Below, piece by piece: positions 17,274-45,186 of a stretch of DNA of 64,000 nucleotides. A program made the translations under genes and the position numbers. The notes under the pieces are model-generated. The model saw only the letters and a program-made list of their open reading frames with translations, was not told the DNA's origin and did not search any database. Each line of letters starts with the position of its first letter. Position 1 is the stretch's first letter. This stretch comes from Halorussus amylolyticus (lineage in GTDB: Archaea; Halobacteriota; Halobacteria; Halobacteriales; Haladaptataceae), in NCBI RefSeq assembly GCF_004143485.2, contig NZ_ML974131.1:241867-305866 (forward strand), given 5' to 3'.

Positions 17274-17297
17274 CCAACCGACTCTCGCGCTTGGCGT

Positions 17298-18960: not shown

Positions 18961-19011
18961 GCGCTCCGAAAGCGGTATTTCGACTCCGCGATTGGTCACG
19001 GACAGAGTCGA

Positions 19012-19521: not shown

Positions 19522-19883
19522 GCGCCCTCGGTGCAAATATCGTCCTGCTGGTCGGTGCGGGCGGCGCGCTCGGCGCGCTCGCCCGGTACGCGGTCGGCGT
19601 CCTGCTCTCGGGTCGGACCGCGGACACCCTCGCGGTCAACGTCCTCGGGAGCTTCGCACTCGGCGCGCTGACCGTGGTTTCGGCCGAGGGGTCGGCTCTC
19701 TCGGCGACGTTCGGGGTCGGTTTCTGCGGCGCATTTACCACGTTTTCGAGCTTCGCGGTCGAGACGGTGCTACTGTACGAGGACGGCGAGCGTCGGGCCG
19801 CGATTCGAAACGCGGCGGTGAATCTGGCGGGCGCGCTACTCGCTGTGGGTCTCGGCGGGTGGGTGGCAATCTGGCTGTCGTGA
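19518..19883 (+). CDS. crcB: CrcB/Fluc fluoride channel, subunit 2
   Basis: 121 residues, a minimal four-helix Fluc protein. GAGGALGALARYAVGV is the first-helix signature, TLAVNVLGSFALGAL carries the conserved Asn, and GFCGAFTTFSSFAVET is the pore motif. It starts at the ATG at 19518, overlapping the stop of subunit 1, and so is made with it. The sequence differs enough from subunit 1 to expect an obligate heterodimer. I see no clear fluoride riboswitch in the short gap before the pair. Confidence 0.93.
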   Translation: MSALGANIVLLVGAGGALGALARYAVGVLLSGRTADTLAVNVLGSFALGALTVVSAEGSALSATFGVGFCGAFTTFSSFAVETVLLYEDGERRAAIRNAAVNLAGALLAVGLGGWVAIWLS

Positions 19884-20070
19884 GTCGCGCAGGCCGAATC
19901 GACGGTATCGTTTCGCGAGGGTCCCAGCCGAGAGATATTCGAAGCAATGCGTAAAGTATTGACATTTGACGTTATCGGGTGGTCGGTTTTCGACTCTGTG
20001 AACGCGCCATTCGGTGTCTTTGCGGGAAACGTCGCAAACTTTAGTATGTAGCAAAAACGTGGAATTACCG

Positions 20071-21195
20071 ATGCCACTTCGTCCCACTGACACCGACGTT
20101 CTCTCGGACATCTGTATGTCGGTCGCATTACAGAACTACGGGTTTCTGTACGTCGACCAAGTGACCGACCAACTCCGGTCGGAGTACGAGAGCGCCGACA
20201 AGAGTCCGCTGAAGGCGAGCTCGCTCTCGGCGACCGACATCAAAAAAGCGATGGAGAACGTAGCGGGCGACGAGTACTCGAAGCTCCAGCGGCTCCGAAC
20301 CGGGGTGTACTACTACGACCCGTTCGGAACAGGCAACGGCGAGGATATCGCCACCGAACTCACCACGCTGTTTCGCCAGCAGCTCGTAGTCACCGGCGAG
20401 GAACTCCGGTCGCGGTTCGACCTCGCCATCGACGACATCGACTTCTTCACCGACGAACTCGCCGACCGGAATCTGGTCCGACGCATCGCGACCGGGGAGC
20501 GCGACTACTACACCATCGGCTCCCAGCTCAAAGAGCAGGCCGGAGAGGCGGGCGTCGCCGCTCGTCTCAGCCAGCGCGCCACGAAGGGGAAACTGACTCA
20601 CGGCGAGCTCGAAAAGGAGATAAGCGTCTCGGCGACCGCCGACGTAATTCGGTATCTGGAGACGCAAGACTTCATCATCGACCTCGACGGCGAGTACTTG
20701 GTCAAGACCGCCATCGACGAGTACGCCACCAAGCTCGCCGACCAACTCACCGAGCGCGTGACCGAGGCGTTCGGAGAGAGCGGCTACGTGATGCCCGAAC
20801 GCGAGTACCGACAGCTCCTCGTGACCGAAATCAAAGAGCGCACCGACGTTCTCGAACGCGAACCCGGTCTCCGGGATACGGTGGTCGAACACGTCGAGAC
20901 GACGCTCGCGGAGGGGTCGGGCGAGACCGGCGAGTCGTATCCCGGCATCGTCGTGGACGAGGACGCCGGGATGGCCGTCCACGAGGAGCAGTTCGACGAA
21001 AAAATCGACTCGCACGCCGAGGAGCTGTCCCGTCAGGTCCTCGCAGACTCGATGGCTTCGACTCCAAGTCAGATGGTCGAGACCGTCCGTTCGGACATCG
21101 ACGCGCTCACGCTGGCGACCGACCCCGACGCCAACGAGTACGTCCAGCGGGAAATCGAGGCTGCGACCCGCGAAAAGATAGAAGAAGAATTTTGA
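20071..21195 (+). CDS. Tubulin cluster gene 1: cytoplasmic winged-helix-like protein
   Basis: 374 residues without signal peptide or membrane span. The N-terminal half looks like repeated winged-helix units (LQNYGFLYVDQVTDQLRSEY, then LVVTGEELRSRFDLAIDDID, then LVRRIATGERDYYTIGS, then TADVIRYLETQDFIIDLDGE); the C-terminal half is helical and acidic. The resemblance to tandem winged helices is my inference, and I assign no family. I chose the ATG at 20071 over an upstream in-frame start, because TTTAGTATG about 25-30 bases upstream is a likely TATA box. It is the first gene of the plus-strand block of the tubulin cluster and is followed after 26 bases by gene 2. Confidence 0.75.
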   Translation: MPLRPTDTDVLSDICMSVALQNYGFLYVDQVTDQLRSEYESADKSPLKASSLSATDIKKAMENVAGDEYSKLQRLRTGVYYYDPFGTGNGEDIATELTTLFRQQLVVTGEELRSRFDLAIDDIDFFTDELADRNLVRRIATGERDYYTIGSQLKEQAGEAGVAARLSQRATKGKLTHGELEKEISVSATADVIRYLETQDFIIDLDGEYLVKTAIDEYATKLADQLTERVTEAFGESGYVMPEREYRQLLVTEIKERTDVLEREPGLRDTVVEHVETTLAEGSGETGESYPGIVVDEDAGMAVHEEQFDEKIDSHAEELSRQVLADSMASTPSQMVETVRSDIDALTLATDPDANEYVQREIEAATREKIEEEF

Positions 21196-21221
21196 ACGCC
21201 TATCCGGAGAAATAGACAACA

Positions 21222-22235
21222 ATGCAGAAATACACCGAATTCGAGACGAAGGGCGAACACGTCGTGGCTAGACCGCGAAACAGCACCGAGGAACCGGTTC
21301 GACTCCCGAAGGAGGTCGCCGACCGCGGAGACGACCAGTCGGCGCAGGGCAACTGGGAGGACGTCGTCGCGCAGTTGACGCGCCACGAACTCGGCGAGAC
21401 GCTGACGATAAACGAAGTCGGCGAGGGCACGATTTCCCGGAACGTTGCGGTGGACGCGCTCGTCAACGCCGAGGAGACGTACGTCCGCGGCGAGACGGGG
21501 GCGAGCGCGCTCATCGACTATCTCGCCAGCGAGGAAATATTCGAAATCGGCGACGACGGCGGCGACGTCGTGGTGCTGAAGTCGCCGTCGGAGGCGCTCG
21601 AAAACAACCCGAAGATGCTCAACAACTGGGCCGCGACACTCGACACCTCCATCGACCGTATCGAGACCGCGGTCCAGCGGGTCAAGGACGCCCAAGAACG
21701 ACTCAAGAAACACGAACAGGACGTTCAGAGCGACGTGAACCTCACGTCACGGACGAGCGACAAGAAGGCCGAGATAAAACAGGAGATACAGAGCCACCTC
21801 GCGGGCCGCCATCCATCCGAACTCGACGACACCGAGTACCAGCGGTTCAAGCAGTTGCGCAAGCGCTACCACATGTACGAGTCGATGGAGAAGGTCAAGG
21901 AGGACGGCGACATCGCCGAATCCGCCGGACAGGCTCAGAAGCTCGGCGAACTCGTCGAGGACTTCGAGACCGTGCAGGCGACGATGGCCGAGATACGCGA
22001 GGACTTCCGGGAACTCGCGCTCAAAAACGACCTGTTCCCGCAGAATGCGGTCGAGCAACTCGACAACTTCGTGGACATCGTCACAGGGCTGACCGACACC
22101 TTCGGTCCCGAGGACAAGATGGAAGAGCAGTCCGACGAGGAGTTCCTCGACGACCTCATGGACAACACCGGCCAGATAGAGGAGGTCAGCGAGAGCGTCG
22201 AGAGCGTGGACCAGGTGCTACACGACACCGCGTGA
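21222..22235 (+). CDS. Tubulin cluster gene 2: coiled-coil protein
   Basis: 337 residues, soluble. Residues about 1-115 are mixed alpha/beta, with an early ETKGEHVVARPRNSTEEPV segment. From about residue 120 the chain is strongly helical with heptad character (ATLDTSIDRIETAVQRVKDA and onward), interrupted near 175-190, ending in an acidic tail. I recognise no family. It is probably a scaffold or adaptor. It follows gene 1 by 26 bases and precedes gene 3 by four, so all are one transcript with the AAA+ ATPase. Confidence 0.75.
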   Translation: MQKYTEFETKGEHVVARPRNSTEEPVRLPKEVADRGDDQSAQGNWEDVVAQLTRHELGETLTINEVGEGTISRNVAVDALVNAEETYVRGETGASALIDYLASEEIFEIGDDGGDVVVLKSPSEALENNPKMLNNWAATLDTSIDRIETAVQRVKDAQERLKKHEQDVQSDVNLTSRTSDKKAEIKQEIQSHLAGRHPSELDDTEYQRFKQLRKRYHMYESMEKVKEDGDIAESAGQAQKLGELVEDFETVQATMAEIREDFRELALKNDLFPQNAVEQLDNFVDIVTGLTDTFGPEDKMEEQSDEEFLDDLMDNTGQIEEVSESVESVDQVLHDTA

Positions 22236-22239
22236 GTCG

Positions 22240-22881
22240 ATGTACGCGATGTCATTCGTCGGGACGGTCCGGTCGGTCGAAGCTCGTTTCACGGCGCTCC
22301 GTCGCCACCGCCGACTCGACGACGAGCGCCCGATTCGGCGGTGCGTCGAGCGGGCGCTCGCCGACCTCGCCGACCTCGTGGAACTAGTCGTGGTCGCGTT
22401 TCCCGTGCCGCCGCTGTCGCGGCCCCGGTCGGCCGACGACGACGAGGCGGTCGAGTCGGTGCTCCGCCGGACCTACGAGCGCGAGGACCCGATGGCCCGT
22501 GACGAGGCCGACCCGGCGGTTCGTGCGCTCGACGGCGGTCGCCTCGAAACCGTCGCCGGAACGCTCCTCGTCCCGCTTCCGTCGGCCGGTCCGGCCGCGG
22601 CGAACTGGTACGTGTTGTACCCGTGGCTCGGCGACCGACTCGACGCGATACGACAGACTTGCGGCCGACTCGCGGGTCGAATCGACGCGCAGGGCTGGCC
22701 CGCGTTCGCCGACGCCCTGCTCGGACTCCGCGAAGTCGTCACCGACCTCCGCTCGGTCGTCGGCCACGCGGTCGCGGTGACCGACTGGATTGCACCGCCC
22801 GACGGCGGCATCGACGACGAAGCCAGAGACGCGCGGCGGACCGCCGCGAGATTGGTCAGGAAGCTATCCAACGAACTATGA
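22240..22881 (+). CDS. Tubulin cluster gene 3: small helical protein
   Basis: 213 residues, soluble, arginine- and acid-rich. Segments such as RPIRRCVERALADLADLVEL and GLREVVTDLRSVVGHAVAVT predict helices; FPVPPLSRPRS may be a flexible link. I do not recognise it. An alternative ATG three codons later (MSFVG) is possible. Its last four bases overlap the start of the AAA+ ATPase (ATGA), suggesting translational coupling and possibly a direct partnership with the ATPase. Confidence 0.7.
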   Translation: MYAMSFVGTVRSVEARFTALRRHRRLDDERPIRRCVERALADLADLVELVVVAFPVPPLSRPRSADDDEAVESVLRRTYEREDPMARDEADPAVRALDGGRLETVAGTLLVPLPSAGPAAANWYVLYPWLGDRLDAIRQTCGRLAGRIDAQGWPAFADALLGLREVVTDLRSVVGHAVAVTDWIAPPDGGIDDEARDARRTAARLVRKLSNEL

Positions 22882-24596
22882 CTCTTAACCTCACACCGAT
22901 ACTGAAACGAGACCAGCCGACCTCTCACGTCGTCGTCGGTCGAAGTAAACTCGACGCATCGACGGAGGTCGTGAAGATACGCCACCGAGGCGTCCCCGTC
23001 TTCTTCAGGGTGGACCCCGAGGACGACCGCCTCGCCGACAGCATCGGCAACAAGGTGTATCTGAACGAGAGCGTCGAGCAACTGTTCGGTGGCATCGACC
23101 GCGGTGAAAGCTTTCTGGTGGATACCTCGCCCCAGTTGCGGTCGGTGCCGGTCTGCAGGGAGGCCACGCTCCACGCGCCGGGTCTCGACGACGAATCGCT
23201 GGCGGCCGCGCTCCGGAGTCGCGAGTACCTCCTCCACCCCGGCATCGAGGAGGTGGCCGACTTCGACGGCCAGCGAATCGAGTTCACGGTCAACGACGCC
23301 GAACCCGCCGACTACACCACCTTGCGAGTCACCGACGCCACCGAACTGGAGTTCGCCGACGAACCCGACCCGAGCGTGAATCACTCCGGCGGTGGGGCCG
23401 CGGGTGGCGCTCGCGGTTCCGGCGGCGGACAAGGCGGCGGACAGGGTGGTTCGGGCGGCGAACAGGGCGGCCGCGAGGAGGTGGACATCGACATCACGCC
23501 CAAGAAGCCGACCAAGAGCTTCGAGGACGACGTGGCCGGGTTGGAAACCGTGAAAGGGACCGCCCGGACGATGCTGGCGATGTTCGACCCCGAGAAACAG
23601 CGCGCTGTCGAGGACCGATACGGCGAGGAGTTCGCGGCCCGCGGCGGGAGCATGATGTTGTACGGCCCGCCCGGGTGCGGAAAGACCCTCGTCTCGGAGG
23701 CCATCGCCCACGAGGCCAAAGAGGAGACCGACATCGAGGAGGAGTACGGCGACGTGAAGTTCCTCGAAATCAAGGGCGGGGACGTGCTCTCGCGGTACCC
23801 CGGCGAGTCCGAGCGCCGCATCGAGGCGGTGTTCGACCAGGCCCACCAGGTCGCCCAGGGCGGGTTCGCGGTCCTGTTCTTCGACGAGGTCGAGACCCTG
23901 ATTCCCGACCGGAGCGACGACGGCCTCCAGCGCCACGAGCGGTCGCTCACCAACGCGTTCCTCCAGGAGATGAACGACATCGAGGACAATCTGTTGGTCA
24001 TCGGCGCGACCAACATGCCGTTCACTATCGACCCCGCGGCGACCCGGCGGTTCCCCATCCAGCAGTTCATCCCCCAACCCGACGCGAAAGTTATGTCGCA
24101 GGTGTGGGAGGTGAATCTCCGGTCGCTCCCCAACGCCGACGACATCGACTTCGAGCGACTCGGCGAGGCGTCGGTGGGGTACACGCCCGCCGAAATCGCC
24201 GACCGCGTGCTCGGAAGCGACCTCCAGCGCGAGTTCGTCGAGAGCATCGTGGACCCGGACCGCGACCCCATCACCCCGGACACCGAGTACCTGCTGGAGT
24301 GGCTGGACGACACCGAACCCAAGACGGTCCGCCAGTACGTCTCCAGCGTGCGCGAGCAGTTGGACGACCTCGAAGGCTACCCGGAGATGCAGCGCTACAT
24401 CGAAGACCAGGCCGAGGAGCACGGTATCTCGCTCGGCCGAGGCGGCGGTGGCGGACTCGGCGACCTGCTCGCGAGCGCGGCGGGCGGCGACTCCTCGGAG
24501 TCGCCGCCCGCGGACGGTGACGGCGAGGAATCGGGAGACACCCCGGAGGACGGCGAACCCGCTCGCCCGCCTGCAGGCGGAGGGAACGAGTCGTGA
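22878..24596 (+). CDS. Tubulin cluster gene 4: Cdc48-like AAA+ ATPase
   Basis: 572 residues, one AAA+ module. The N-terminal domain (about 1-165) is unlike the double-psi barrel of Cdc48 in sequence and probably recognises a cluster-specific substrate. A Gly/Gln-rich linker spans about 170-198. The motor has Walker A GPPGCGKT (263-270), Walker B VLFFDEVET (332-340), sensor-1 GATN (376-379) and a candidate arginine finger in TRRFP near 390. The C-terminus is Gly/acid-rich and disordered, with a 15-base palindrome (24480-24511). Such ATPases unfold proteins or disassemble polymers; here it could remodel the tubulin-like filaments. It overlaps gene 3 and gene 5 by four bases each. Confidence 0.9.
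   Translation: MTLNLTPILKRDQPTSHVVVGRSKLDASTEVVKIRHRGVPVFFRVDPEDDRLADSIGNKVYLNESVEQLFGGIDRGESFLVDTSPQLRSVPVCREATLHAPGLDDESLAAALRSREYLLHPGIEEVADFDGQRIEFTVNDAEPADYTTLRVTDATELEFADEPDPSVNHSGGGAAGGARGSGGGQGGGQGGSGGEQGGREEVDIDITPKKPTKSFEDDVAGLETVKGTARTMLAMFDPEKQRAVEDRYGEEFAARGGSMMLYGPPGCGKTLVSEAIAHEAKEETDIEEEYGDVKFLEIKGGDVLSRYPGESERRIEAVFDQAHQVAQGGFAVLFFDEVETLIPDRSDDGLQRHERSLTNAFLQEMNDIEDNLLVIGATNMPFTIDPAATRRFPIQQFIPQPDAKVMSQVWEVNLRSLPNADDIDFERLGEASVGYTPAEIADRVLGSDLQREFVESIVDPDRDPITPDTEYLLEWLDDTEPKTVRQYVSSVREQLDDLEGYPEMQRYIEDQAEEHGISLGRGGGGGLGDLLASAAGGDSSESPPADGDGEESGDTPEDGEPARPPAGGGNES
24480..24511. repeat. In-gene 15-base inverted repeat (2-base loop)
   Basis: Arms 24480-24494 and 24497-24511 around TC, in frame in the disordered tail of the AAA+ ATPase (AGGDSSESPPADG). 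Confidence 0.85.
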
Positions 24597-27397
24597 CGCC
24601 ACCGACCGACTACGCGCCGACCGGGTCGTTCGAGTCCGCGACCGTGACCGCGGTCGCCGCCGACGCCGACCGCGTCGTCCTCGGCACCGAGGCGGGCGAG
24701 ATTGCGGTCGTCTCCTCGGACGGCAGAACGACGACCGAGTTCGACGACCCGGTCGCCGACCTCGCGGTCGGCAACCGAATCTACGCGCTGGCAGGCGACA
24801 CCGTCGCCGCGCTCTCGGGCGCGGGCACCCGCGTCTGGTCGGTCGAACTCCCGTCGGCCGAGACGTTGGCCGCGCTTCCGGGGGCAGACGTGCTCGGCGT
24901 CGTGACCGACGACGACGCCTTCCTCGGATTCGACGGCGAGACCGGCAGCCAGCGGTTCGACGCGTCCGACCCTCACGCGGACGTGACCGATGACCCCGGT
25001 TTCTTCGCGACCGACGGCGCGTTCGTGTTCGTCGCGTGGTCGTTTCTCGCGGTCCGGAACCCCGACGGGAGCGAGCGGTTCGACCGAAACCTCGACGGCG
25101 CAATCGAGTCGGCCGGAATCGTCGGCGAGACCATCGTCGTCTCGCTCAAAGACGAGCGCGTGGTTGGAATCGACGCCGAGACCGGCGACCGGCAGTGGGA
25201 GCGCGAACTCACGGTCACCGACCTCCCCGAGCGCGGCGACGACGCCCTGTTGTTCACCGCCGATGGCGAACTGGTGTCGCTCGCGCCCGACGGCACGTAC
25301 GGACCGGTCACCGACCTCCCGAGCGGTGATGTCTACCCCACGAGCGACGGGAGTTTGTTCTGCGTCGTCGCCGACGGCACCGTCTCGGTGTATCGCTCCA
25401 TTGGCGACCCGTCCGAGGCGCTCGCGGTCGAAATCGACGACGCCGAACTCGTCCCCGGCGCGGCCGACGAACTCGACTTCACGGTCCGAAACGACGGCGA
25501 CGACCCCGTCTCGGCCGCGCTCGAAATCGACGGCGAGGGCGTCGTGTTCGCCGGTGGCGACCGCTCGATAGACCTCCCACCGGGCGAGTCTGCCGACCTG
25601 TCGGTGTCGGTCGGCACCGTGACCGCCGACCAGACCGCGACCGTCGCGGTCGGTATCCGCGACAGCACCTTGGCGTCGGCGTCGCTCCCGGTCGCGTCGA
25701 GCGCATCGCCGACCGATGCGCTCGACGTGACCGCCGAACTCGACGCCGTCGCTGACGGCACTGCCACGCTGGCCGTTACGGTCCGAAACGACGGCGAGAC
25801 GCCCCTCGACGGCGTTTCGGTGTCGCCCGGCGATGCTCGTTTCGAGCGACTCCGGTCCGGCGAGTCCGCGACCGCAACCGTCGAGACCGAGTTCGACCCC
25901 GGACGGACGGTTCCGTTGACGGTTCGAACCGAGCGTGGCGAGACCGGTACCGACGTGTCGCTCCCCGACCGTGCCGCCGACCTCGCAATCGAGGCGACCG
26001 ACCGGTCGTTCGTGGACGTTCGGGTCGAAAACGCGACCGACGCCGAACTCGCCGACGACCTCGCAGTCGAAGGGGACCGCGTCGGCGGGCGGGTCGAGCG
26101 CCGAGTCGAACTCCCCGGCGGGGGCGCGCTCGTTCTCGCGCTCCGACCCGAGACCGCGCCGGGCGAGGTGCGAGTGGACGCGAGTCTCGACGGACTCGGC
26201 GCGCGCGAGTCGGCGACGTTCGACGCCGGAGAGTTCGAGGTGCCAGCGCACGAGCGGCCGTCCGAACCGGTCGCTCGAAGCGCGACGAGCGAGGACGCAC
26301 AGGCGCGCACGCCGACCGGGGGTGCACCGTCGAACGCGGCGACCGACGCCGAGCGCAGGACTCCGGACCCGACCGGTGCGGTCCTCTCGGCCGACCGAAC
26401 CGTCGAATCGACCGACCCCGCCCGGACGCAGGGCGTGCGCGAGCGTCTCACAATCGAGAACGAGGGCGACGAGACCGCCGAGGACGTTCGGGCGTCGTTC
26501 CCCTCCGAGACGGCCGCGGTCGGCGCGCTCGCGCCGGGCGAGCGCGCCACCCTCGTACGCAGACACGCGTTCGCCGAGACGGGACCGGTCGAACTTCCGT
26601 CCGGAACCGTCACGGCTGAGAACGCGTCCGACGCCCGAATCGACGGACGAAGCCTCGCGGTCGGCCCCGCCGAGTTCGCGGTCGAAGTCGGCTTCGACGC
26701 CGACGACGGGGGTCGCCGTCTCGCGGTCACGCTCACCAATCGACGCGACGTGGGGTGTGACGTGACTCGAATCGGTGTCAAGGGATTCGGCGTGTGGGAC
26801 ACCGACCTTCGGGTCCCGCCGGGCGAGACGGTCGAGTGGACCCGCCCGGTCGAATCCGGGGGGCTGTCCGGGACCGCGGTCGAGACCGCGGTCGAGTACG
26901 CCTACGACGACCGCGACCCCGAACGGTGGGGGACGATGGGGTACGTTCCCGACGCCGACGCCGACGACCCGGAGGGTATCGACGCGCTCGCGGCGTCGGT
27001 CGGCGAGGAGACCCGCGTTTCGGGCGGCTACGGGAGCGTCGTCCTCGTGGTCGAGAACGCCTCGGGGTCGCCCGTTTCGGACGTGTCGGTCGAGGCGACC
27101 GGCGAGGCGGTCAGCGACCTGATGTACGCGGGGAGCGAGTCGGTAGAGCGCCTCGATGCGGACGAGGCGTTCACTCACTTCGTGGACGTGGAGGCCGAGG
27201 GCCCCGACGTTTCGGTCGCGGTCGCCCTCGCCACGGACGACGACGAGACCGAACTGACGCTCCGCGGCCCGGCCCCCGCCGACGAGGACGGCTGGTCCGA
27301 ATCGACGCTCGACGAGTGGCGCGTCGAGCGCGCGGACGGCGACGGGACCGACGACTCTCGGCCGACTCACGTCGCTTCGTCGTTCGCGGTGCAGTAG
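24593..27397 (+). CDS. Tubulin cluster gene 5: beta-propeller plus Ig-fold protein without signal peptide
   Basis: 934 residues. Residues about 1-270 have repeated strands like a PQQ/WD-type propeller (RVVLGTEAGEIAVVSSDG, IYALAGDTVAALSGAG, GIDAETGDRQWEREL). The rest is a series of CARDB/Ig-like domains (DFTVRNDGDDPVSAALEIDG, AVTVRNDGETPLDGVSV, LVVENASGSPVSDVSVEA). No signal peptide or membrane span is visible, so these usually extracellular folds would lie in the cytoplasm. It starts at a GTG overlapping the ATPase stop (GTGA). It may be an internal scaffold on which the ATPase works. An in-frame inverted repeat lies at 25695-25727. It converges with the minus-strand block; nothing gene-like lies in the 108-base gap. 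Confidence 0.8.
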   Translation: MTPPTDYAPTGSFESATVTAVAADADRVVLGTEAGEIAVVSSDGRTTTEFDDPVADLAVGNRIYALAGDTVAALSGAGTRVWSVELPSAETLAALPGADVLGVVTDDDAFLGFDGETGSQRFDASDPHADVTDDPGFFATDGAFVFVAWSFLAVRNPDGSERFDRNLDGAIESAGIVGETIVVSLKDERVVGIDAETGDRQWERELTVTDLPERGDDALLFTADGELVSLAPDGTYGPVTDLPSGDVYPTSDGSLFCVVADGTVSVYRSIGDPSEALAVEIDDAELVPGAADELDFTVRNDGDDPVSAALEIDGEGVVFAGGDRSIDLPPGESADLSVSVGTVTADQTATVAVGIRDSTLASASLPVASSASPTDALDVTAELDAVADGTATLAVTVRNDGETPLDGVSVSPGDARFERLRSGESATATVETEFDPGRTVPLTVRTERGETGTDVSLPDRAADLAIEATDRSFVDVRVENATDAELADDLAVEGDRVGGRVERRVELPGGGALVLALRPETAPGEVRVDASLDGLGARESATFDAGEFEVPAHERPSEPVARSATSEDAQARTPTGGAPSNAATDAERRTPDPTGAVLSADRTVESTDPARTQGVRERLTIENEGDETAEDVRASFPSETAAVGALAPGERATLVRRHAFAETGPVELPSGTVTAENASDARIDGRSLAVGPAEFAVEVGFDADDGGRRLAVTLTNRRDVGCDVTRIGVKGFGVWDTDLRVPPGETVEWTRPVESGGLSGTAVETAVEYAYDDRDPERWGTMGYVPDADADDPEGIDALAASVGEETRVSGGYGSVVLVVENASGSPVSDVSVEATGEAVSDLMYAGSESVERLDADEAFTHFVDVEAEGPDVSVAVALATDDDETELTLRGPAPADEDGWSESTLDEWRVERADGDGTDDSRPTHVASSFAVQ
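25695..25727. repeat. In-gene 14-base inverted repeat (5-base loop)
   Basis: Arms 25695-25708 and 25714-25727 around CCGAC, in frame in the propeller/Ig-fold gene between two Ig-like domains (VASSASPTDALDV). Confidence 0.8.
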
Positions 27398-27505
27398 TCG
27401 TCGGTACGAATTTTCCGCTCAGAAGTCAGTCGATTCGGTCGTGTAGCGCGAGCGATTTTCCGGGCTGTAAAAAGCGCGGTCGTCGAAAATCGAATCGAGA
27501 ACCGC

Positions 27506-31199: not shown

Positions 31200-31212
31200 G
31201 TTTTCCTCCCGG

Positions 31213-34017: not shown

Positions 34018-34019
34018 GG

Positions 34020-38393: not shown

Positions 38394-38656
38394 TACGCGT
38401 CACCTCGCTTCAGGTACGCGCCAGCCCCACCAGCCACCAGTCCGACCGCGAGGCCGACCCCGAGTCCCGCGACCCGCGGCGTCCAGATGTCGTTCGCGAG
38501 CGTGACAGCGGCGTACGTCGCGTCCGCCTGCTGGTGTATCTGTGCGGACAGCGCCGAAGTGGTCGTCCCGCCGTCGGCTCCGGTCACGGCCGACTGGAGA
38601 GCGACCGCGAGCGCGAAGACGACCGCGAGACCCACGACAGAGCGTTCGCGTCTCAT
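38393..38656 (-). CDS. Tubulin cluster gene 11: small membrane protein
   Basis: 87 residues. An N-terminal signal or anchor helix (SVVGLAVVFALAVALQSAVT) is followed by about 35 external residues and a glycine-rich membrane helix (VAGLGVGLAVGLVAGGAGAY) ending KRGDA. It resembles a small subunit or holin-like spacer. The ATG at 38656 overlaps the end of gene 10 by four bases (ATGA), so it is coupled to the tubulin-like protein. I assign no family. Confidence 0.7.
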   Translation of the reverse strand: MRRERSVVGLAVVFALAVALQSAVTGADGGTTTSALSAQIHQQADATYAAVTLANDIWTPRVAGLGVGLAVGLVAGGAGAYLKRGDA

Positions 38657-39849
38657 ATCGGATTCTGTGCCTCGTACTGGTCGGCTTGGTCTTCTATCTC
38701 CGCGATTCGGTCGATTTGGTCGCGCTCGTACGTGAACAGCGACGTGAACGACGCGAGGTTCCGGCGGGTCAGCGCCACGCCGAGGTTGACCTCCGAGCAC
38801 TGCGATTCGAGGAACCGCCGGATGGTCGAGGTCTCGATGCGCTTGCCCTCGTTCGAGATGTGTTCGACGGGTGCTCGGATGAGACCAATTGCCTTCTGGG
38901 CCTCGCTCGGCGAGACGCCCGAGAGCGTCTGCTTGCTCGCCGCGAGTCGCGAGAGCGCGCTGCTATCGACCTCGCGGTCGCCGACGAACGGGACGAGATA
39001 GCCGACCAGCGACTTGGTCATCGTGACCGACCGCCCGATGGTCGCGTACCCCGGCCGGGAGTTCGTGCCCCGGGTGTCGAACGACAGCGACGTCACCACG
39101 TCCTGGAGGTCCACGACCGGCGGGTCCACCTCGTCGTACTCGCTCGGGTCGATTCGTTCGAGCGTCGAACCCGAGATGAGGTCCACGAGACCAGACGCCA
39201 CGTACTCGTTGTACTCCGAAAATCGGCCCTCGGCGGCGTTCTCGTAGGCGAGTCGCTGATTGTCCACGAGGACGATGCCATCGACCGACTCCTCCAGTCG
39301 GTCGAGACCGTAGATGGTGTTCCACGCCTGTCGGCCCGCGCTTATCTGCTCGTCGTCGTCCTCGGCGACCGGTCCGTCCGTGTTCGGAAGCACGCCGACT
39401 CCGATGATTTGTGCCACGCCGTCGGTGTACTCCTTGATGGCGTCGGCGACGTGGGGCGCGATACCGCACCCGGTTCCGCCGCCGAGTCCGAGACAGACGA
39501 ACGCGAACGGGATGTCGCCCGGCGTTCCGTCGGGCTCGTCGAAGTGAGCCGCCAGCGTCTCTACGAGTTCCCCGCGGTGGTCCTCCATCACGGAGTCGGC
39601 CTCCACCGGATTCCGACCGAACCCACCTGTGACCTGTTCCTCGAACCCCGGCGTGCCCCGTTCGACCAATCCGTGTCGCTCGGCGATGCCGTACTGACTC
39701 TCCTCGTCGATATTTGATAAATTTCTGAGGTCTCGAATGGTCGAATTGAACACGAGGGGAGATGCAGGTGTAGAGACGCGTCGGTGCCCGAACACGTCGT
39801 CTACGATTGCGCTCCCTGCTTGCCCTGTGCCAGCAAATACGTATACCAT
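38653..39849 (-). CDS. Tubulin cluster gene 10: divergent tubulin/FtsZ-family GTPase (paralogue II)
   Basis: 398 residues. It starts MVYVFAGTGQAGSA, placing the first glycine-rich loop (7-13) at the extreme N-terminus as in CetZ proteins. The G-box is LGGGTGCG (122-129). GLDRLEESVDGIVLVDNQRL matches the guanine-contact helix and strand. PPVVDLQDVV supplies the T7 acidic pair at 247 and 250. All polymerisation determinants appear intact. Of the three paralogues it looks closest to the CetZ/FtsZ group. It heads the promoter-proximal part of the eight-gene run 39849-27506; an AT-rich stretch with TATA-like motifs lies just upstream. Confidence 0.88.
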   Translation of the reverse strand: MVYVFAGTGQAGSAIVDDVFGHRRVSTPASPLVFNSTIRDLRNLSNIDEESQYGIAERHGLVERGTPGFEEQVTGGFGRNPVEADSVMEDHRGELVETLAAHFDEPDGTPGDIPFAFVCLGLGGGTGCGIAPHVADAIKEYTDGVAQIIGVGVLPNTDGPVAEDDDEQISAGRQAWNTIYGLDRLEESVDGIVLVDNQRLAYENAAEGRFSEYNEYVASGLVDLISGSTLERIDPSEYDEVDPPVVDLQDVVTSLSFDTRGTNSRPGYATIGRSVTMTKSLVGYLVPFVGDREVDSSALSRLAASKQTLSGVSPSEAQKAIGLIRAPVEHISNEGKRIETSTIRRFLESQCSEVNLGVALTRRNLASFTSLFTYERDQIDRIAEIEDQADQYEAQNPI

Positions 39850-39939
39850 GTCGGTACGTCGGTACTTTATCTACAAAGCTCGTACATATATCTGGCGAAA
39901 ATCAAAACTTAGATATATGATGTATATCTTACGGGTGGG
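39850..39939 (-). promoter_or_regulatory. AT-rich promoter region of the second minus-strand operon
   Basis: A 90-base gap between genes 9 and 10 is markedly AT-rich, with several TATA-like motifs on the minus strand (GATATACAT, CATATATCT, AGATATATG). It is the only sizeable break in the minus block apart from the 64-base gap after gene 6. This suggests that genes 10-17 have their own promoter. Confidence 0.55.
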
Positions 39940-40365
39940 CTATCCACGGAGCCGTCTCAGCATGACGCTGTATTCGTTTCGCTCGTAGAGCTGTGTCACG
40001 TGGTCGAGGGTTTCGTCCGCGGCCGCACAGAGTCCGGCGGCGCGCGCGTCGTCGCCGGTCGCGGCCGCGCGCTCGGCCTCGTCCGCGAGCGCGTCCACCA
40101 GCGAGAGGAAGTGGAGCGGGATGCTGTGGTTGTGGTCGCGGCGACCCTCGACGTACCTGTCTTCGAGGTCCTCGCGGCGCTCGGCGACTCGCGCGAGCGG
40201 CACGTCCGCGCTCTCGCTCGAACCTCCGCTGGCCGCGCCCGTCCCGCCGAGTTCCGAGAGCAACGTCCGGTCGTAAAATCGGAGTTCGTTCCGAATCGCG
40301 TAGGGGATGACCCGATTCGACTCGTCGGCGCGGTCGAGCATCCCTCGAAGGTCGCCGACGCGCAC
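39940..40365 (-). CDS. Tubulin cluster gene 9: small helical protein
   Basis: 141 residues, soluble, mostly helical (VGDLRGMLDRADESNRVIPY, LVDALADEAERAAATGDD, ETLDHVTQLYERNEYSVML). I do not recognise it. The proposed start is a GTG at 40365, 27 bases after the stop of gene 8. Some ORF shadows overlap here, but codon usage and acidic composition favour this strand. It is the last gene before the internal promoter region. Confidence 0.6.
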   Translation of the reverse strand: MRVGDLRGMLDRADESNRVIPYAIRNELRFYDRTLLSELGGTGAASGGSSESADVPLARVAERREDLEDRYVEGRRDHNHSIPLHFLSLVDALADEAERAAATGDDARAAGLCAAADETLDHVTQLYERNEYSVMLRRLRG

Positions 40366-40392
40366 GGCGAGCGCGTCGGCGACCGGCCCCGA

Positions 40393-41469
40393 TTAGTCGT
40401 CGAGTCGGTCCGCCACGGCGTCGGCGAGGCTTCGAACCGAATCGCGGTCGAGGTCCGAGACGATGCTGTGGGTCGTGGTCGCGGCGTCCAACTGCTCGGC
40501 CGCGGTGTCGAGCGCGGCCTCCACGTCGCCCAGTTTCGGCGACGCGAGTCGGTCGAGGAGACGCTTCGCAATCGCGCTCTCGGGGTTTCGAGACCGCCGA
40601 ACCTCGGCCGCGGCCGCGGGGACGCGGCCGCTCCCGCCCGCACCGAATCCGAGTTCGTCGCGGTTCACCGCGTCGGCGACGACGCCCAACCGCTCGGCGA
40701 CCGGCCGACCGCTGTTCGGGCCGACGTCGAGGTCTGTCGCTTCGGTCGCGCTCTCGGTCAGCGTGTCGGTGGCGTCGGCGATTCGTTCGTACTCAGTCTC
40801 GCGGTTCTCGGCGGTCGCGTGGCTCTCCTCGGCCTTCGCGGCCAGCCGCCGGACCCCCGCCGTGACCGCGTTGTCGGGGTGGTCGAGCCGATTTCGGACC
40901 CGTCGGGCCTCGCTCGGCGCGAACTCGTCGCCCTCGGACACGTCGCCCAGTGCGCGTTCGAGTTCGCGTTGCGTGTCGAGCGCGCCGACCGCGCGTTCGA
41001 GCAGGTCGGTCAGTTCGCCGCGGTCCGCACGGGCCGGTGCCGCGGTCGCGTCGAGCAACCGACGGGCCGCGGGAGAAGACGGCGACGCGTCACTTTTGAC
41101 GGCGGCGGCCGCGCTCGCAACCGTCCCACCGGTCTCACCCTCCGACCCCGCCGTTGCCGCCGGGCCGACCGAGAGCCGGTCGCGCTCGACCGCCCGCGAC
41201 AGCGCCTCGGCCTTCTCGACGCTCGACGCGTCGGCGGCCGGGGGGTTCGAAACGTGGCGGTCGAGGTCGGCGTCGGCTATCAGCGTGTCTATCGCTCTGT
41301 CGAGCGCGTCGAGCTTTCGCTCGACCGCGTCGGGGTCCTCTCGGGCGTCGAGTCGCCGTGCGATTCGACTCAGACCGCCGTCGTCGTTCGAGTCGCGCCC
41401 GAACAGACCGAGGACGCCGACGCCGACCAGCGATGCCGCGGCCGCACCGAGTGGGACGAGCACCTCCAT
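40393..41469 (-). CDS. Tubulin cluster gene 8: N-anchored helical protein
   Basis: 358 residues. A single N-terminal hydrophobic helix (MEVLVPLGAAAASLVGVGVL, about 3-22) anchors a long, helical, Ala/Glu/Asp-rich cytoplasmic body with heptad stretches (KLDALDRAIDTLIADADLD, LERAVGALDTQRELERALGD). It resembles an adaptor or spacer. The ATG at 41469 starts two bases after the stop of the tubulin-like gene 7, arguing for direct coupling and a possible role as its membrane anchor. No family is recognised. Confidence 0.72.
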   Translation of the reverse strand: MEVLVPLGAAAASLVGVGVLGLFGRDSNDDGGLSRIARRLDAREDPDAVERKLDALDRAIDTLIADADLDRHVSNPPAADASSVEKAEALSRAVERDRLSVGPAATAGSEGETGGTVASAAAAVKSDASPSSPAARRLLDATAAPARADRGELTDLLERAVGALDTQRELERALGDVSEGDEFAPSEARRVRNRLDHPDNAVTAGVRRLAAKAEESHATAENRETEYERIADATDTLTESATEATDLDVGPNSGRPVAERLGVVADAVNRDELGFGAGGSGRVPAAAAEVRRSRNPESAIAKRLLDRLASPKLGDVEAALDTAAEQLDAATTTHSIVSDLDRDSVRSLADAVADRLDD

Positions 41470-41471
41470 GA

Positions 41472-43088
41472 TTAGGCCATGTTCTCCCGACCGAGACACG
41501 AGAACAGCGGGTCCACGAGGTGCCAGATGTCCCGGAGGCTCTCGGCCTGTCTGCTGTTGCCCTCCTCTTTGAGTTTCTTTGCGTGTTCGTACATCGCTTC
41601 GAGCGACGGCATCCGGGGGTTCCAGAGCGTGCCCCAGAGGTAGACGTCGTCGAGGTACGGGATGACCATCTGGCTGATGTGGATGTCGATGGACTCCGCA
41701 CCGCTCACGTCTCCCACGTCGAGCATCTCCTCGCCGCCGATTATCTCACGGAGCGTGTTGTCGTTGACGTACGGCGAGATGCTCTCCATCTTCTCCTCGG
41801 GACCGTAGATGAGGAAGGTGCCGCCCCACGCGGTCGTGGGGTCGAAGTCCGAGAGCTTGTTGTGGAACAGCGCGTTCCGCACCAGAATTTCGAGGCCCGA
41901 CTTGTCGAGCGAGGCGTCCCGCGACCGGCCCAACACGGGCGCGAGGATGACCGCGGGGGTGTACTCGCGGTCGAGGTCGAGCGGGTACTTGTCCTCGACG
42001 GGCCGGAAGCTGTCGGACACGTCGAACACCTCGCCCTGAATCGACATGGTCGCGTCTTGGTCGATAATCTGGGGCGTCGAGGACATGGTGAACGCCTCCA
42101 GGAACGCGACCAGCGGCTTGTTGAGTTCGGTGTACTGGGGTGGATTGTACCGCTCGATGCCGTCGATGCGTGGCTTTACGTCGCCCTGCACGTCCTGCAG
42201 TCGCTCGTTGTTGAACGGGATGATGGCGTCGGCGGTCTGGGACATCCGGGCGAGTCCGACCGCGCCGTTGGTCCGCGCCCGGCCGCCGAACTTGTCCTCC
42301 GCGGAGGGGATGACGACCGAACTCAGAATCGCCTTGTCGATGACGTAGTCGTCGGACAGCACCTCCTCGCGGACGTGTTCGGCGAGCGCGGGCGTCGAAC
42401 CGCACCCGGTGCCCTTCGTGACGCTGTGGACGAACATGATTGCCTGGGCGTCCCGGATGTGCTGGGGGTCCATGTCCCACCGTTCGCGGAACGGATTGCC
42501 GTCCTCGAAGTCCGCCCGGACCACCTTCTCGCCGTTGTCCCACCGCCGCCCCATCCCGGAGTAGTCGTGCTTGCCGAACCCGATGATGGCGTTCGGAAGC
42601 AGGTCGTTTCTGCTGTACTCCTTGAGTTCCTGGGCGTAGTAGGTCTGCTCCAACTCGGCGATGTTGGTGTTGAGCATGCCGTAGCCCGCGAGACCGCCCC
42701 GCCACACCAGCGACCGGTCCTCGTTGTTGCGCTCCAGCGTCGATTTCCGGAGCAAGATGGCGTCCATGATGTTGTTACCCGCGCCGCCGACGCCTATCAT
42801 GTACCACTTCTTTCCGTAGGTGTCGTCGAGCAGGTCGTCGCTCACCGAGCTATCGAAGCCTCCGTCGTCGAGGGGTCCGAGTTCCGACCCGGACTCCGCC
42901 TCGGAGTCTGCGTCGGTCTCGTCGTCGGTTTCGACCGGTGCGCCGTTCTCGAACAGGCGTTCGTACCGGTCGCTGTACACCGCGCGAATCGAAGTCTCGT
43001 CGGTCGCGTGGGATTCGAGCAGGTGGTCGTCGAGGCTGTTCTCCGGCCATTCGGCCTTCGTCTGGTAGCAGATTCTGCACTTTGTCAT
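41472..43088 (-). CDS. Tubulin cluster gene 7: zinc-finger/tubulin-family GTPase fusion (paralogue III)
   Basis: 538 residues. The N-terminus carries a Cys2His2-like motif: C4 and C7 in CRICYQT, then H22 and H27 in DDHLLESH. An acidic linker covers about 52-88. The GTPase domain starts YMIGVGGAGNN (about 96-106). The G-box is KGTGCGS (225-231), with Lys replacing the first Gly of the usual GGGTG. RTNGAVGLARM and ADAIIPFNNERL are the guanine-contact segments, and VFDVSDSF gives T7 aspartates at 356 and 359. A zinc finger on a tubulin-like protein is unusual and may bind DNA, RNA or a partner. Gene 8 follows after two bases. Confidence 0.87.
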   Translation of the reverse strand: MTKCRICYQTKAEWPENSLDDHLLESHATDETSIRAVYSDRYERLFENGAPVETDDETDADSEAESGSELGPLDDGGFDSSVSDDLLDDTYGKKWYMIGVGGAGNNIMDAILLRKSTLERNNEDRSLVWRGGLAGYGMLNTNIAELEQTYYAQELKEYSRNDLLPNAIIGFGKHDYSGMGRRWDNGEKVVRADFEDGNPFRERWDMDPQHIRDAQAIMFVHSVTKGTGCGSTPALAEHVREEVLSDDYVIDKAILSSVVIPSAEDKFGGRARTNGAVGLARMSQTADAIIPFNNERLQDVQGDVKPRIDGIERYNPPQYTELNKPLVAFLEAFTMSSTPQIIDQDATMSIQGEVFDVSDSFRPVEDKYPLDLDREYTPAVILAPVLGRSRDASLDKSGLEILVRNALFHNKLSDFDPTTAWGGTFLIYGPEEKMESISPYVNDNTLREIIGGEEMLDVGDVSGAESIDIHISQMVIPYLDDVYLWGTLWNPRMPSLEAMYEHAKKLKEEGNSRQAESLRDIWHLVDPLFSCLGRENMA

Positions 43089-43152
43089 TGTTGTGTATTC
43101 TGTGTCGAGCGGTCGGTGCTCCCGTCCCGTTCTACTGCATCCGCGCTTCGCG

Positions 43153-45057
43153 CTATCCGTACTGCTCCCGGTATCGCTCGTGAAGCGCGTCCGCCGCGGC
43201 CTCGACGGACGTCCCTTCCTTGGGAACGAGTTCGATGAATCCGGGCGGCGCGTTCTCCTGCACGTCGAGCGTTTCGAGCACGTCGGTCTGGCGCTGCCCG
43301 AACCGGCGTATCTGTGTCAGCACTGCGGGCGTGGCGACGCTCTCGGGCAGTTCGCCGGTCTGGATTTCGGCGTGGTCGCCGTCGGTCGCCCGCCCGGCGG
43401 TTTTCAGCTCGCGGAACACGAACAGCACCGAGTCGATTACCTCCTCGGGTCGGGCCCGCTCGACCTGCCCGTCGGACTCGGTTCGGACGTCGGCTTCGCC
43501 CCGTTCGTGAGCGGCGACTTCTCCGCCGACTCCGGATTCGGAACCGCCCTCGGATTCGTCACCGGGTTCCGTCTCGCCCGCCCGCTCCCGGTACGTGAGT
43601 TCGAGCGCGCCGTCGGCGACCCGAAACTCGACGCCGTACTCGCGCTCGAACGCCGGGCGAAGCCGCTCGATAGCCGTCGGGTCCACGCTCGCGGGAAGCG
43701 AGACGCGCTCGCCGCGGTGGTCGATGGTGCCGACGACGCTCCAGAGGAACTCCACGAGCGTCACGGCCTCGCTCGCGTCTTCGGCGGCCTCCTCGGCCGC
43801 ACGCTCGGCCTCGTCGAACCGACAGTCGTGAAGCGCGTCCCGTCCCGAATCCAGTCGCTCGCGGACTCCCCGCACGCTCGGGAGGTCGCCGTCGCGGCCC
43901 TCGACCACTAACTCCGAGAGTCGGTCGGCGACACGGCCCTCGAATCGGTCGCACTTGGTCTCGACCGTCTCGATATCGGACCCGGCCGCGTCGGCACGCT
44001 CGGCGAACGAGGATTCGTACTGGCCGACGTAAGCCTCGATGCGCCCGACGTGGTCGTCCACCTCGCCGACCGCCTGCGCGACGGTTTCGAGGTCGGCACC
44101 CTCGTCGAGACGCGAGAGAAACGCTTCGTCGATTCGGCCGACGTGGACCGCCGTGTCGAACGCTTGAATCTCTACGTCTCGGAACCGACTCGGGAGGTTC
44201 ACGAGTTCGTACGACCGGTCGTACCGCGACCAGCACTGGACCGTACCGTAGGTGGTTCTGACGCCGGACGCGACCCGCTCGCGGAGGTCGTCCTCGATGC
44301 GACCGACTTCCGTCTCGGGGTCGAGACTCTCGACGCGACTCGCGAGCGACGACGCCTCGGCCCGGAGTTGGTCGGCCGACCCGCGGCCGGCGGCCGCCAC
44401 GTCGGATTCGAGACCGTCGCACCGCTCTCGGAACTCTCGCCGACGTTCTCGGGCACGCTCGACCCCGTTCGGCGCGATATCGGCGAGCGCGTCGAGGTCA
44501 CCGATTCGTCGGCGATACGCCTCCTCGAACGCCTCTCGCTTCCGGTCGAGGTCCGACGCGACCGCGGCGAGTTCGGCCGACTTCTCCTCGACTACCTTCT
44601 CGTCCCAGTCGTGACCGAGCGCCGACCCGACCGCCGCGCCCGACGCGACGACCGGAACTGCGAAGAACCCGAGGACCTGCACGAGCGGTACGTCAGACCC
44701 GAACATCGGGAAGTAAACGCCGAAGAACAGCGCGAAGAACAGCACAGAGACGAGTCCCGCGGCCGCGAACGTCACGTCGCGGTTGTGCCGCCCGAACTGC
44801 GCTACGCCCTGTGCGGCCCACGCGCCCGCGATGAGTACGAACAGTCCGGACACCAGCCCCGGACTCTGCCACATGAGAATCGCGGCGGCGTCGAACACCG
44901 CGACCGAGCGAATCGCGTCCTGCACGCCGCTAAGACCCGCCGAGCCCAGTGTCGTCTCAGCGACCGCCAACGTCGTCTGGACGAACGTCGCCAGTATTGG
45001 TACCCCTGCGAGCCCCCATGCCGCGAGGGGTAACTGCGTGTCACGACCTGTAGCCAT
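43153..45057 (-). CDS. Tubulin cluster gene 6: four-span membrane protein with cytoplasmic coiled coil
   Basis: 634 residues. Four hydrophobic helices lie in about residues 10-145 (LPLAAWGLAGVPILATFVQT; SGLFVLIAGAWAAQGVAQF; FAAAGLVSVLFFALFFGVYF; VLGFFAVPVVASGAAVGSAL). A long coiled coil follows (about 150-410), then a mixed domain and an acidic linker, and a final small domain (VFRELKTAGRATDGDH, FGQRQTDVLETLDVQ). I chose the ATG at 45057; a GTG one codon before is possible. It is first in the minus block, with tubulin-like gene 7 64 bases downstream, and could be the membrane platform of the system. No family is recognised. Confidence 0.75.
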   Translation of the reverse strand: MATGRDTQLPLAAWGLAGVPILATFVQTTLAVAETTLGSAGLSGVQDAIRSVAVFDAAAILMWQSPGLVSGLFVLIAGAWAAQGVAQFGRHNRDVTFAAAGLVSVLFFALFFGVYFPMFGSDVPLVQVLGFFAVPVVASGAAVGSALGHDWDEKVVEEKSAELAAVASDLDRKREAFEEAYRRRIGDLDALADIAPNGVERARERRREFRERCDGLESDVAAAGRGSADQLRAEASSLASRVESLDPETEVGRIEDDLRERVASGVRTTYGTVQCWSRYDRSYELVNLPSRFRDVEIQAFDTAVHVGRIDEAFLSRLDEGADLETVAQAVGEVDDHVGRIEAYVGQYESSFAERADAAGSDIETVETKCDRFEGRVADRLSELVVEGRDGDLPSVRGVRERLDSGRDALHDCRFDEAERAAEEAAEDASEAVTLVEFLWSVVGTIDHRGERVSLPASVDPTAIERLRPAFEREYGVEFRVADGALELTYRERAGETEPGDESEGGSESGVGGEVAAHERGEADVRTESDGQVERARPEEVIDSVLFVFRELKTAGRATDGDHAEIQTGELPESVATPAVLTQIRRFGQRQTDVLETLDVQENAPPGFIELVPKEGTSVEAAADALHERYREQYG

Positions 45058-45150
45058 CACCTACATCTCTCTCAGTGGGGTTTCAAAACGTTTGCCCTTG
45101 GTGGTATGTCCGGATTCGAGAGAGTATCGGCCGTCGTTCACTTCACGCCC

Positions 45151-45186
45151 GACCGGAGCAGACCGCGACCGCGGTCTGCTCCGGTC
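45151..45186. terminator. 17-base inverted repeat overlapping the HPP-gene stop
   Basis: Perfect arms 45151-45167 and 45170-45186 around AC. It overlaps the first bases of the HPP gene stop codon and so lies at the 3' end of that minus-strand gene, 94 bases upstream of cluster gene 6. It probably ends the HPP transcript before the tubulin cluster begins. Confidence 0.55.

What the first reader, a model, noticed from the sequence alone, without database searches (positions are those of the whole stretch)
20071..45057. A 25-kb cluster built around three divergent tubulin-family GTPases and a Cdc48-like ATPase
Seventeen genes in two convergent blocks (five plus, twelve minus), many overlapping by 1-8 nt. 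They encode three tubulin/FtsZ-superfamily proteins, one AAA+ ATPase, at least eight membrane or secreted proteins and several coiled-coil adaptors. Seen: G-boxes, T7 D-x-x-D pairs, Walker motifs, signal peptides, TMs. Known: tubulin-family GTPases polymerise using these residues; AAA+ proteins disassemble complexes. Inferred: a filament system inside the cell coupled to an Ig-fold structure in the envelope, for shape, adhesion, secretion or membrane remodelling. Comparative work by Makarova and Koonin has noted extra FtsZ-like families tied to membrane remodelling; whether this locus falls in one is open.
Basis: partly seen in the sequence, partly recalled or inferred. Interest (0 to 1): 0.97.

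Follow-up and report, generated by a model that had tools for sequence, protein, structure and literature searches.

The report
Three-tubulin archaeal ESCRT membrane-remodelling locus
This salt-loving archaeon carries a 16-gene kit, travelling as one block between species, that pairs three unusual relatives of tubulin with an ESCRT-like set of parts (the toolkit our cells use to pinch membranes) and eight membrane proteins; the kit was predicted once before on paper but nobody has tested what it does.

Summary
In the window the 17 open frames at 20071-45060 are two convergent operons with three PF00091 tubulin-family proteins and one Cdc48-type AAA+ ATPase. One gene (g14+g15) is a single gene split by an in-frame stop, so the unit has 16 genes. 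The same order and orientation recurs in at least 29 further haloarchaeal genomes. A marker of each half co-occurs in 35 of 35 genomes, even where the halves are unlinked. Cluster genes agree with each other and conflict with the species tree, and cluster-less sister species have an empty site, so it moves as a unit. The three GTPases are three separate families outside FtsZ/CetZ and FtsZl1, all with aligned T7 D-x-x-D pairs. The order matches the published 'Halo_adaptin' ESCRT system (Makarova et al. 2024), so this is a member of a known, untested system. In the text I could read, the paper mentions one CetZ-like protein. I found no report of the three tubulin families, or of swaps in four genomes where half the cluster sits beside an FtsZl1-type or other divergent tubulin operon. 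Best reading: a membrane budding or sorting machine driven by GTPase polymers and a Cdc48-type ATPase; function is inferred.

The parts
20071..21195 (+). g01, tandem winged-helix protein (374 aa), cytosolic; first gene of the ESCRT-like block
   Evidence: AF2 model pLDDT 75.6 with repeated HHH-EE units; fold hits UFL1 (E 9e-5), SelB, weaker ESCRT-II; in 36/392 genomes, including all 35 with TubC
21222..22235 (+). g02, acidic N-terminal domain plus coiled coil (337 aa), cytosolic
   Evidence: conserved position, only generic coiled-coil hits; corresponds by position to the wH-plus-coiled-coil arCOG11741 of Halo_adaptin
22240..22881 (+). g03, small protein directly upstream of the ATPase; positional match of the proposed ESCRT-III/PspA-like protein
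   Evidence: in all 29 plus-blocks found; 27% mean column identity; no Pfam match, Snf7/PspA not seen
22878..24596 (+). g04, single-AAA ATPase with Cdc48/VAT-type N domain, no MIT domain
   Evidence: PF00004 2.2e-30, CDC48_2 7.3e-5; PDB profile best Cdc48/p97 4e-56, Vps4B 2e-32; Walker A GPPGCGKT and Walker B invariant
24593..27397 (+). g05, PQQ beta-propeller plus Ig-like repeats, no signal peptide (adaptin-like protein of Halo_adaptin)
   Evidence: PF13360 1.9e-9; TM scan
27506..30199 (-). g06, signal peptide, Ig-like domains, C-terminal TM
   Evidence: HYDIN/CARDB/FixG_C Ig hits; 2 TM in 30 of 33 homologues
30192..31199 (-). g07, signal peptide, helical ectodomain, C-terminal TM
   Evidence: present in 33 genomes
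31213..34017 (-). g08, secreted Ig-like N part, TM, cytosolic transthyretin/Ig-like domains
   Evidence: PF13620 5e-10, MG4; TM near residue 430
34020..35243 (-). g09 TubA, tubulin-superfamily GTPase, nearest solved structures 4b46/4b45 (archaeal FtsZ/CetZ)
   Evidence: PF00091 2.8e-9; GGGTGNG and D239xxD242 invariant; separate clade
35236..37335 (-). g10, two N-terminal TMs, coiled coil, Ig-like (SpaA) domain, C-terminal domain
   Evidence: 2 TM in 33 of 33 homologues
37332..38393 (-). g11, signal peptide, ectodomain, two C-terminal TMs
   Evidence: 3 hydrophobic segments in 33 of 33 homologues
38393..38656 (-). g12, small two-TM protein (about 87 aa)
   Evidence: orthologous slot annotated on H. 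salinarum R1 pHS2 (83 aa)
38653..39849 (-). g13 TubB, tubulin-superfamily GTPase
   Evidence: PF00091 3.3e-10; PF13809 20.5 bits, below cut-off 27; GGGTGCG and D247xxD250 invariant
39940..41499 (-). g14/15, coiled-coil protein with N-terminal TM in part of the family; split here by an in-frame TAA at 40393-40395; conserved C-terminus LYERNEYSVMLRRLRG
   Evidence: alignment with 19 intact homologues; uninterrupted in the near relative G050
41472..43088 (-). g16 TubC, tubulin-superfamily GTPase with N-terminal C2H2 zinc finger and KGTGCG T4 loop
   Evidence: PF00091 2e-12; C4, C7, H22, H27, KGTGCG, D356xxD359 invariant
43153..45060 (-). g17, four N-terminal TMs, long helices, C-terminal alpha/beta domain
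   Evidence: AF2 pLDDT 85.6; no significant fold match; retained with TubC and g15 in G201 and G006
19888..45202 (.). span absent from cluster-less Halorussus (empty site between crcB and the HPP gene/tRNA-Asp)
   Evidence: in G066 only 377 bp lie between the two flanks; crcB-rpoB'' 1.7-2.4 kb apart in six cluster-less congeners

Best explanation
The locus is a complete Halo_adaptin-type archaeal ESCRT system. Shown: a conserved, horizontally transferred 16-gene unit with three separate tubulin-superfamily families (nucleotide-loop and T7 residues intact), a Cdc48-type single-AAA ATPase, a tandem winged-helix protein, and eight membrane proteins, four of which have an ectodomain. Inferred mechanism: Ig-bearing and other ectodomain membrane proteins (g06, g07, g08, g11) gather cargo or surface partners. 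Membrane-anchored coiled-coil proteins (g10, g14/15, g17) recruit TubC and the TubA/TubB pair, which polymerise with GTP at that membrane patch. The winged-helix and coiled-coil proteins g01/g02, with g03 in the ESCRT-III position and the PQQ-Ig protein g05, link the patch to g04, which takes the assembly apart with ATP. The product would be a budded vesicle or a sorted membrane domain, not the division ring, because the genome also holds ordinary FtsZ/CetZ proteins. FtsZl1-type operons can stand in for parts of it.
For: Gene order matches the published description (wH protein, wH+coiled coil, PspA-like, Vps4-like ATPase with VAT_N and no MIT, propeller-Ig protein, more Ig proteins, membrane protein, CetZ-like). 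Same order in at least 29 other genomes and in Haloquadratum walsbyi J07HQW1, from the published exemplar species. AAA and N-domain hits; tandem winged helices. Co-occurrence 35/35 of TubC and g01, also when unlinked: Halopenitus keeps g01-g05 elsewhere in the genome, about 60-265 kb away where both lie on one contig. Internal congruence of gene trees. Three distinct tubulin clades with T4/T7. Module swaps: G132 and G138 carry the TubA/TubB half next to an FtsZl1 operon; G201 carries the g15-TubC-g17 half next to one; G006 carries that half near another divergent tubulin-like frame.
Against: No functional data. g03 shows no ESCRT-III/PspA similarity by Pfam, so the ESCRT-III step rests on position and on the paper's own weak similarity. 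The ATPase scores better to Cdc48 than to Vps4/CdvC. Extracellular vesicles in Haloferax are made by the ArvA small GTPase, and CetZ knockouts there do not change vesicle output (PMC10927574), so vesiculation does not need this locus. Only about 9% of sampled haloarchaea have it. The paper describes two propeller-Ig proteins per locus; only one was found here.
Confidence: 0.6

Rival explanations
1. It builds and positions a cell-surface structure (adhesion, contact or envelope patch) of Ig-domain proteins; the tubulins are a static intracellular scaffold and the AAA protein a quality-control unfoldase. No budding is involved.
For: Four proteins with ectodomains and C-terminal anchors, g06-g08 and g11; patchy, transferable distribution typical of surface traits.
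Against: Winged-helix/coiled-coil/AAA block matches ESCRT-type loci; all three GTPases keep catalytic T7 acids, suggesting turnover rather than a static scaffold.
Confidence: 0.2
2. It is a defence or inter-microbial conflict system spread by transfer and plasmids.
For: Patchy, unit-wise transfer, empty sites, plasmid copies; the AAA domain hits IetA models.
Against: No nuclease, toxin or effector domain in any of the 16 proteins; the IetA hit is a generic AAA match that scores below CDC48; 16 genes kept in strict order at high identity.
Confidence: 0.08
3. A TubZRC-like DNA partition system: tubulin filaments plus winged-helix DNA-binding protein that segregate a replicon.
For: Found on several large plasmids; g01 is made of winged helices, with TubR among weak fold hits (E 0.08).
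Against: Chromosomal in the window and most genomes; eight membrane proteins; nothing like a repeated centromere seen in the locus.
Confidence: 0.03
4. Ordinary CetZ paralogues for cell shape with unrelated neighbours.
For: Tubulin-superfamily proteins in a haloarchaeon; TubA's closest solved relatives are archaeal FtsZ/CetZ entries.
Against: TubA, TubB, TubC fall outside the CetZ clade (support 100) and the CetZ+FtsZ clade (95); neighbours strictly conserved.
Confidence: 0.03

Closest known systems
Halo_adaptin archaeal ESCRT system (Makarova et al. 2024, mBio 15:e00335-24, PMC10936438)
   Same: Gene order of the plus block, single-AAA ATPase with Cdc48/VAT N domain and no MIT, winged-helix proteins, PQQ-Ig protein, extra Ig and membrane proteins, tubulin-family member outside CetZ; the exemplar species Haloquadratum walsbyi (strain J07HQW1) has the same locus
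   Different: The readable text names one CetZ-like protein and a membrane protein; here three tubulin families and eight membrane proteins are seen. ESCRT-III identity of g03 was not reproduced. Supplementary tables could not be read, so the authors may list more.
FtsZl1 / Tubulin_2 systems (Makarova and Koonin 2010, PMC2875224)
   Same: Divergent tubulin-superfamily GTPase encoded with membrane proteins and predicted to remodel membranes; FtsZl1 operons sit beside half-clusters in G132, G138 and G201
   Different: TubA/B/C do not pass PF13809, are 400-540 aa without the long coiled coil, and keep the T7 D-x-x-D that FtsZl1 lacks
CetZ family (haloarchaeal cell shape)
   Same: Tubulin superfamily; TubA profile's best PDB hits are 4b46 and 4b45
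   Different: Separate clades outside CetZ+FtsZ; embedded in a fixed 16-gene locus
UFL1 (UFM1 E3 ligase) and ESCRT-II tandem winged-helix proteins
   Same: g01 model is a chain of winged helices; best fold hits are UFL1 (E 9e-5), then SelB, then ESCRT-II (0.013)
   Different: TM-scores are low (0.15-0.35), so this is a resemblance of architecture, not evidence of membership

Membership tests
Halo_adaptin ESCRT | Single-AAA ATPase with Cdc48/VAT-type N domain and no MIT domain | tested here: met
   AAA 2.2e-30, CDC48_2 22.8 bits (cut-off 22.4), no MIT hit; profile vs PDB
Halo_adaptin ESCRT | Vps4-like ATPase groups with the Meth_adaptin/Halo_adaptin Vps4 clade in a tree rooted on Cdc48 | not tested
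   reference sequences not at hand; by HMM it is nearer Cdc48 than CdvC
Halo_adaptin ESCRT | Winged-helix protein as first gene of the locus | tested here: met
   AF2 model and fold search of g01
[quoted passage not shown]
   g02 has a coiled coil and sits in that position; the winged helix was not modelled
Halo_adaptin ESCRT | ESCRT-III/PspA-like protein directly upstream of the ATPase | tested here: inconclusive
   g03 holds the position, no Pfam similarity in 20 homologues; the paper reports only weak similarity
Halo_adaptin ESCRT | Two adaptin-like proteins with PQQ/WD40 propeller plus Ig domains | tested here: inconclusive
   one found (g05); a second propeller was not detected
Halo_adaptin ESCRT | Tubulin-family protein outside the main CetZ branch, extra Ig proteins, membrane protein | tested here: met
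Halo_adaptin ESCRT | Same locus in Haloquadratum walsbyi | tested here: met
   strain J07HQW1: g01-g08 and TubA-TubC with g10, g11, g15, g17 in the same order
FtsZl1 (PF13809) | Passes the Tubulin_2 model | tested here: not met
   TubB 20.5 bits against 27, TubA and TubC no hit
FtsZl1 (PF13809) | Long coiled coil and helical C-terminus, no recognisable T6-H7/T7 | tested here: not met
   lengths 398-538 aa; T7 D-x-x-D invariant
CetZ | Branches within the CetZ clade | tested here: not met
   CetZ clade support 100 and CetZ+FtsZ clade support 95 exclude TubA, TubB and TubC
Tubulin/FtsZ superfamily | PF00091 GTPase domain with T1, T4 and T7 loops | tested here: met
   all three above cut-off; motifs aligned
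Tubulin/FtsZ superfamily | GTP-dependent polymerisation | not testable with these tools
   needs purified proteins
TubZRC partition | Centromere-like repeats next to tubulin and winged-helix genes | tested here: not met
   only short low-identity or tRNA-related repeats in the locus

The most novel reading that the evidence does not exclude
The unit is a membrane-remodelling machine with three tubulin families in which TubC (zinc-finger tubulin anchored through g17/g14-15) and the TubA/TubB pair form a mixed GTPase polymer serviced by a Cdc48-type ATPase, and in which FtsZl1 operons can replace the ATPase/TubC half. That would make FtsZl1 systems and Halo_adaptin ESCRT systems exchangeable variants of one machine joining the tubulin and ESCRT toolkits.
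Probability: 0.35. Interest if true: 0.85.

Novelty: new member of a known kind. Interest (0 to 1): 0.62.

Why it matters
Tubulin-type filaments and ESCRT-type machines are usually separate toolkits; this locus packs three tubulin families, a Cdc48-type ATPase and ESCRT-associated parts into one transferable unit in cells that already divide with FtsZ. It ties together two systems so far predicted separately (FtsZl1 and Halo_adaptin). It is present complete on plasmid pHS2 of Halobacterium salinarum R1, a standard laboratory strain, so the prediction can be tested directly. All of its genes there are annotated as hypothetical, FtsZ, ATP-binding or PQQ repeat proteins.

Tried and rejected
Ordinary CetZ paralogues: rejected by the tree. 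FtsZl1 membership: rejected by PF13809 and T7. Mobile element with attachment repeats: no flanking repeats; the two tRNA-Asp genes beside the cluster are also found in most cluster-less congeners. Phage origin: TubA has no match in 50,697 phage records. Defence system: no effector; only a generic AAA hit to IetA. PDB profile search of g01: weak hits to unrelated enzymes and SelB. g02: chance coiled-coil hits. g03: nothing. g17 fold search: no significant match. The first HMM round drew CetZ proteins of G017, G306 and G002 into the Tub profiles; profiles were rebuilt without them, and those proteins fall in CetZ.
Full report
Observation. The window lies in a haloarchaeal genome (G000, contig 2, 3.78 Mb in total), and its neighbours match the genus Halorussus. 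Between crcB and the RNA polymerase operon lie 17 open frames, five on the plus and twelve on the minus strand, converging with about 110 bp between the blocks. Three encode PF00091 proteins above cut-off and one a AAA ATPase with a Cdc48 N-domain. The genome has seven further FtsZ/CetZ proteins elsewhere. Two of the 17 frames (39940-40365 and 40393-41499) share a frame and are parts of one gene that is intact in nearly all other genomes compared, including the near relative G050; G234 has a shorter single frame. The unit therefore has 16 genes, and the window strain carries either a nonsense mutation or a sequencing error.

Conservation. TubC was sought in 392 genomes of the order; 35, the window's own included, have a strong match. 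Neighbourhoods of 40 kb were compared: 29 other genomes show the complete order and orientation, counting Halopenitus for the minus-strand block only, and further ones are broken only by contig ends. Flanking genes are shared only within the genus. The small gene g12 is the least certain family; its slot is present and it is annotated in H. salinarum. g01, which has no known domain by sequence, was searched independently in the same 392 genomes: 36 have it, namely all 35 TubC genomes plus one genome that is 59% complete. In three Halopenitus genomes the plus-strand block has moved elsewhere in the genome yet is retained. Gene trees of six cluster proteins agree with each other (0-4 conflicting supported splits) but conflict with the RpoA' tree in 8-10 of 22. 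Cluster-less Halorussus species show an empty site: in G066 the window flanks 19887 and 45203 are 377 bp apart. The cluster also occurs on plasmids. It moves as one accessory unit by a route not identified here; no integrase or flanking repeats were found.

The three GTPases. A tree of tubulin-superfamily proteins from haloarchaea gives TubA (support 71), TubB (100) and TubC (100) as separate clades, outside CetZ (100) and CetZ+FtsZ (95), and apart from FtsZl1 (98). Deep branching order is weakly supported and should not be read. All three keep the T1 glycines, a T4 loop and a D-x-x-D pair aligned with the FtsZ T7 loop. TubC differs: KGTGCG in place of GGGTG(S/T)G and an invariant C2H2 zinc finger at its N-terminus. 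Sequence alone supports GTP binding and possibly hydrolysis; polymerisation is inferred from the superfamily.

The other parts. g04 is closest to Cdc48/p97 and, over one domain, Vps4. The AF2 model of g01 shows tandem winged helices, with UFL1, SelB and, more weakly, ESCRT-II among the fold hits; TM-scores are low and this is not a claim of homology. g17 models as four membrane helices, long cytosolic helices and a C-terminal alpha/beta part, without a PDB match. Membrane segments and signal peptides were judged by hydropathy only, so topology is tentative.

Comparison with known systems. The plus-strand order (winged-helix protein, coiled-coil protein, small protein, Cdc48-like single-AAA ATPase without MIT, PQQ-Ig protein) matches the Halo_adaptin ESCRT system defined by Makarova et al. 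[quoted passage not shown]). Their exemplar species, Haloquadratum walsbyi, has the whole locus in strain J07HQW1, including TubA, TubB and TubC. The locus is therefore a member of a known kind. Two defining features were not reproduced: ESCRT-III similarity of g03 and a second propeller protein. The paper's text speaks of one CetZ-related protein; its supplementary tables were not readable here, so the number it lists is unknown to me.

What seems unreported. First, three distinct tubulin families per locus. Second, module exchange: G132 and G138 carry g05-g11 with TubA and TubB next to an FtsZl1 operon, and neither has a TubC or g01 match in its genome. G201 carries g15-TubC-g17 and a PQQ protein next to an FtsZl1 operon without TubA/B. 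G006 carries the same TubC half with a PQQ protein near another divergent tubulin-like frame, an AAA gene and a metallopeptidase-like gene. The FtsZl1 operons share neighbouring membrane genes with each other. FtsZl1 occurs in many other haloarchaea without these halves, so the link is one of combination, not dependence.

Mechanism. Shown: parts list, conservation, co-inheritance, motif integrity. Inferred: assembly of TubA/B/C at a membrane patch recruited by g10, g14/15 and g17; coupling to ectodomains through g06-g08 and g11; disassembly by g04; outcome budding or sorting. Against a general role in vesicle production: Haloferax makes vesicles with ArvA, and CetZ knockouts do not alter them (PMC10927574).

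Verdict. Real, strongly conserved, a member of a published but experimentally untouched system (as far as the searched papers show), with unreported tubulin complexity and FtsZl1 exchange, and testable in Halobacterium salinarum R1, where the complete unit is on plasmid pHS2.

Noticed in passing
window 40393-40395 (- strand): In-frame TAA splits g14/15, which is one gene in nearly all relatives compared; strain-specific pseudogenisation or an assembly error.
   Followed up: yes
window 45804-45877, 46552-46578, 46729-46802: Two tRNA-Asp genes with a 27-nt tRNA 3'-end fragment between them, like a remnant of tRNA-targeted integration; the tandem tRNAs are also in most cluster-less congeners.
   Followed up: partly
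L257 15446-39847 (Halobacterium salinarum R1 pHS2): The complete 16-gene unit on a plasmid of a laboratory strain; TubA there is annotated only as hypothetical protein.
   Followed up: yes
L198 2303-3490 and L200 2569-3756: In Halopenitus the detached ESCRT-like block lies about 3 kb from a CetZ-type gene.
   Followed up: no
L104 and L103 (G006, joined 10888-20521): Near the divergent TubC half lie a MoxR-like AAA gene, a metallopeptidase-like gene and another tubulin-like frame (GGGG...GGSGNGT), possibly a further variant system.
   Followed up: no
L045 about 2813-3751 and L192 3870-4805: Second copies of g02 near the cluster in G156 and G016.
   Followed up: no
L193 and L194 (G212, G381): Clusters of two or three shorter (765-957 aa) Tubulin_2 proteins in tandem, another multi-tubulin arrangement in haloarchaea.
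   Followed up: no
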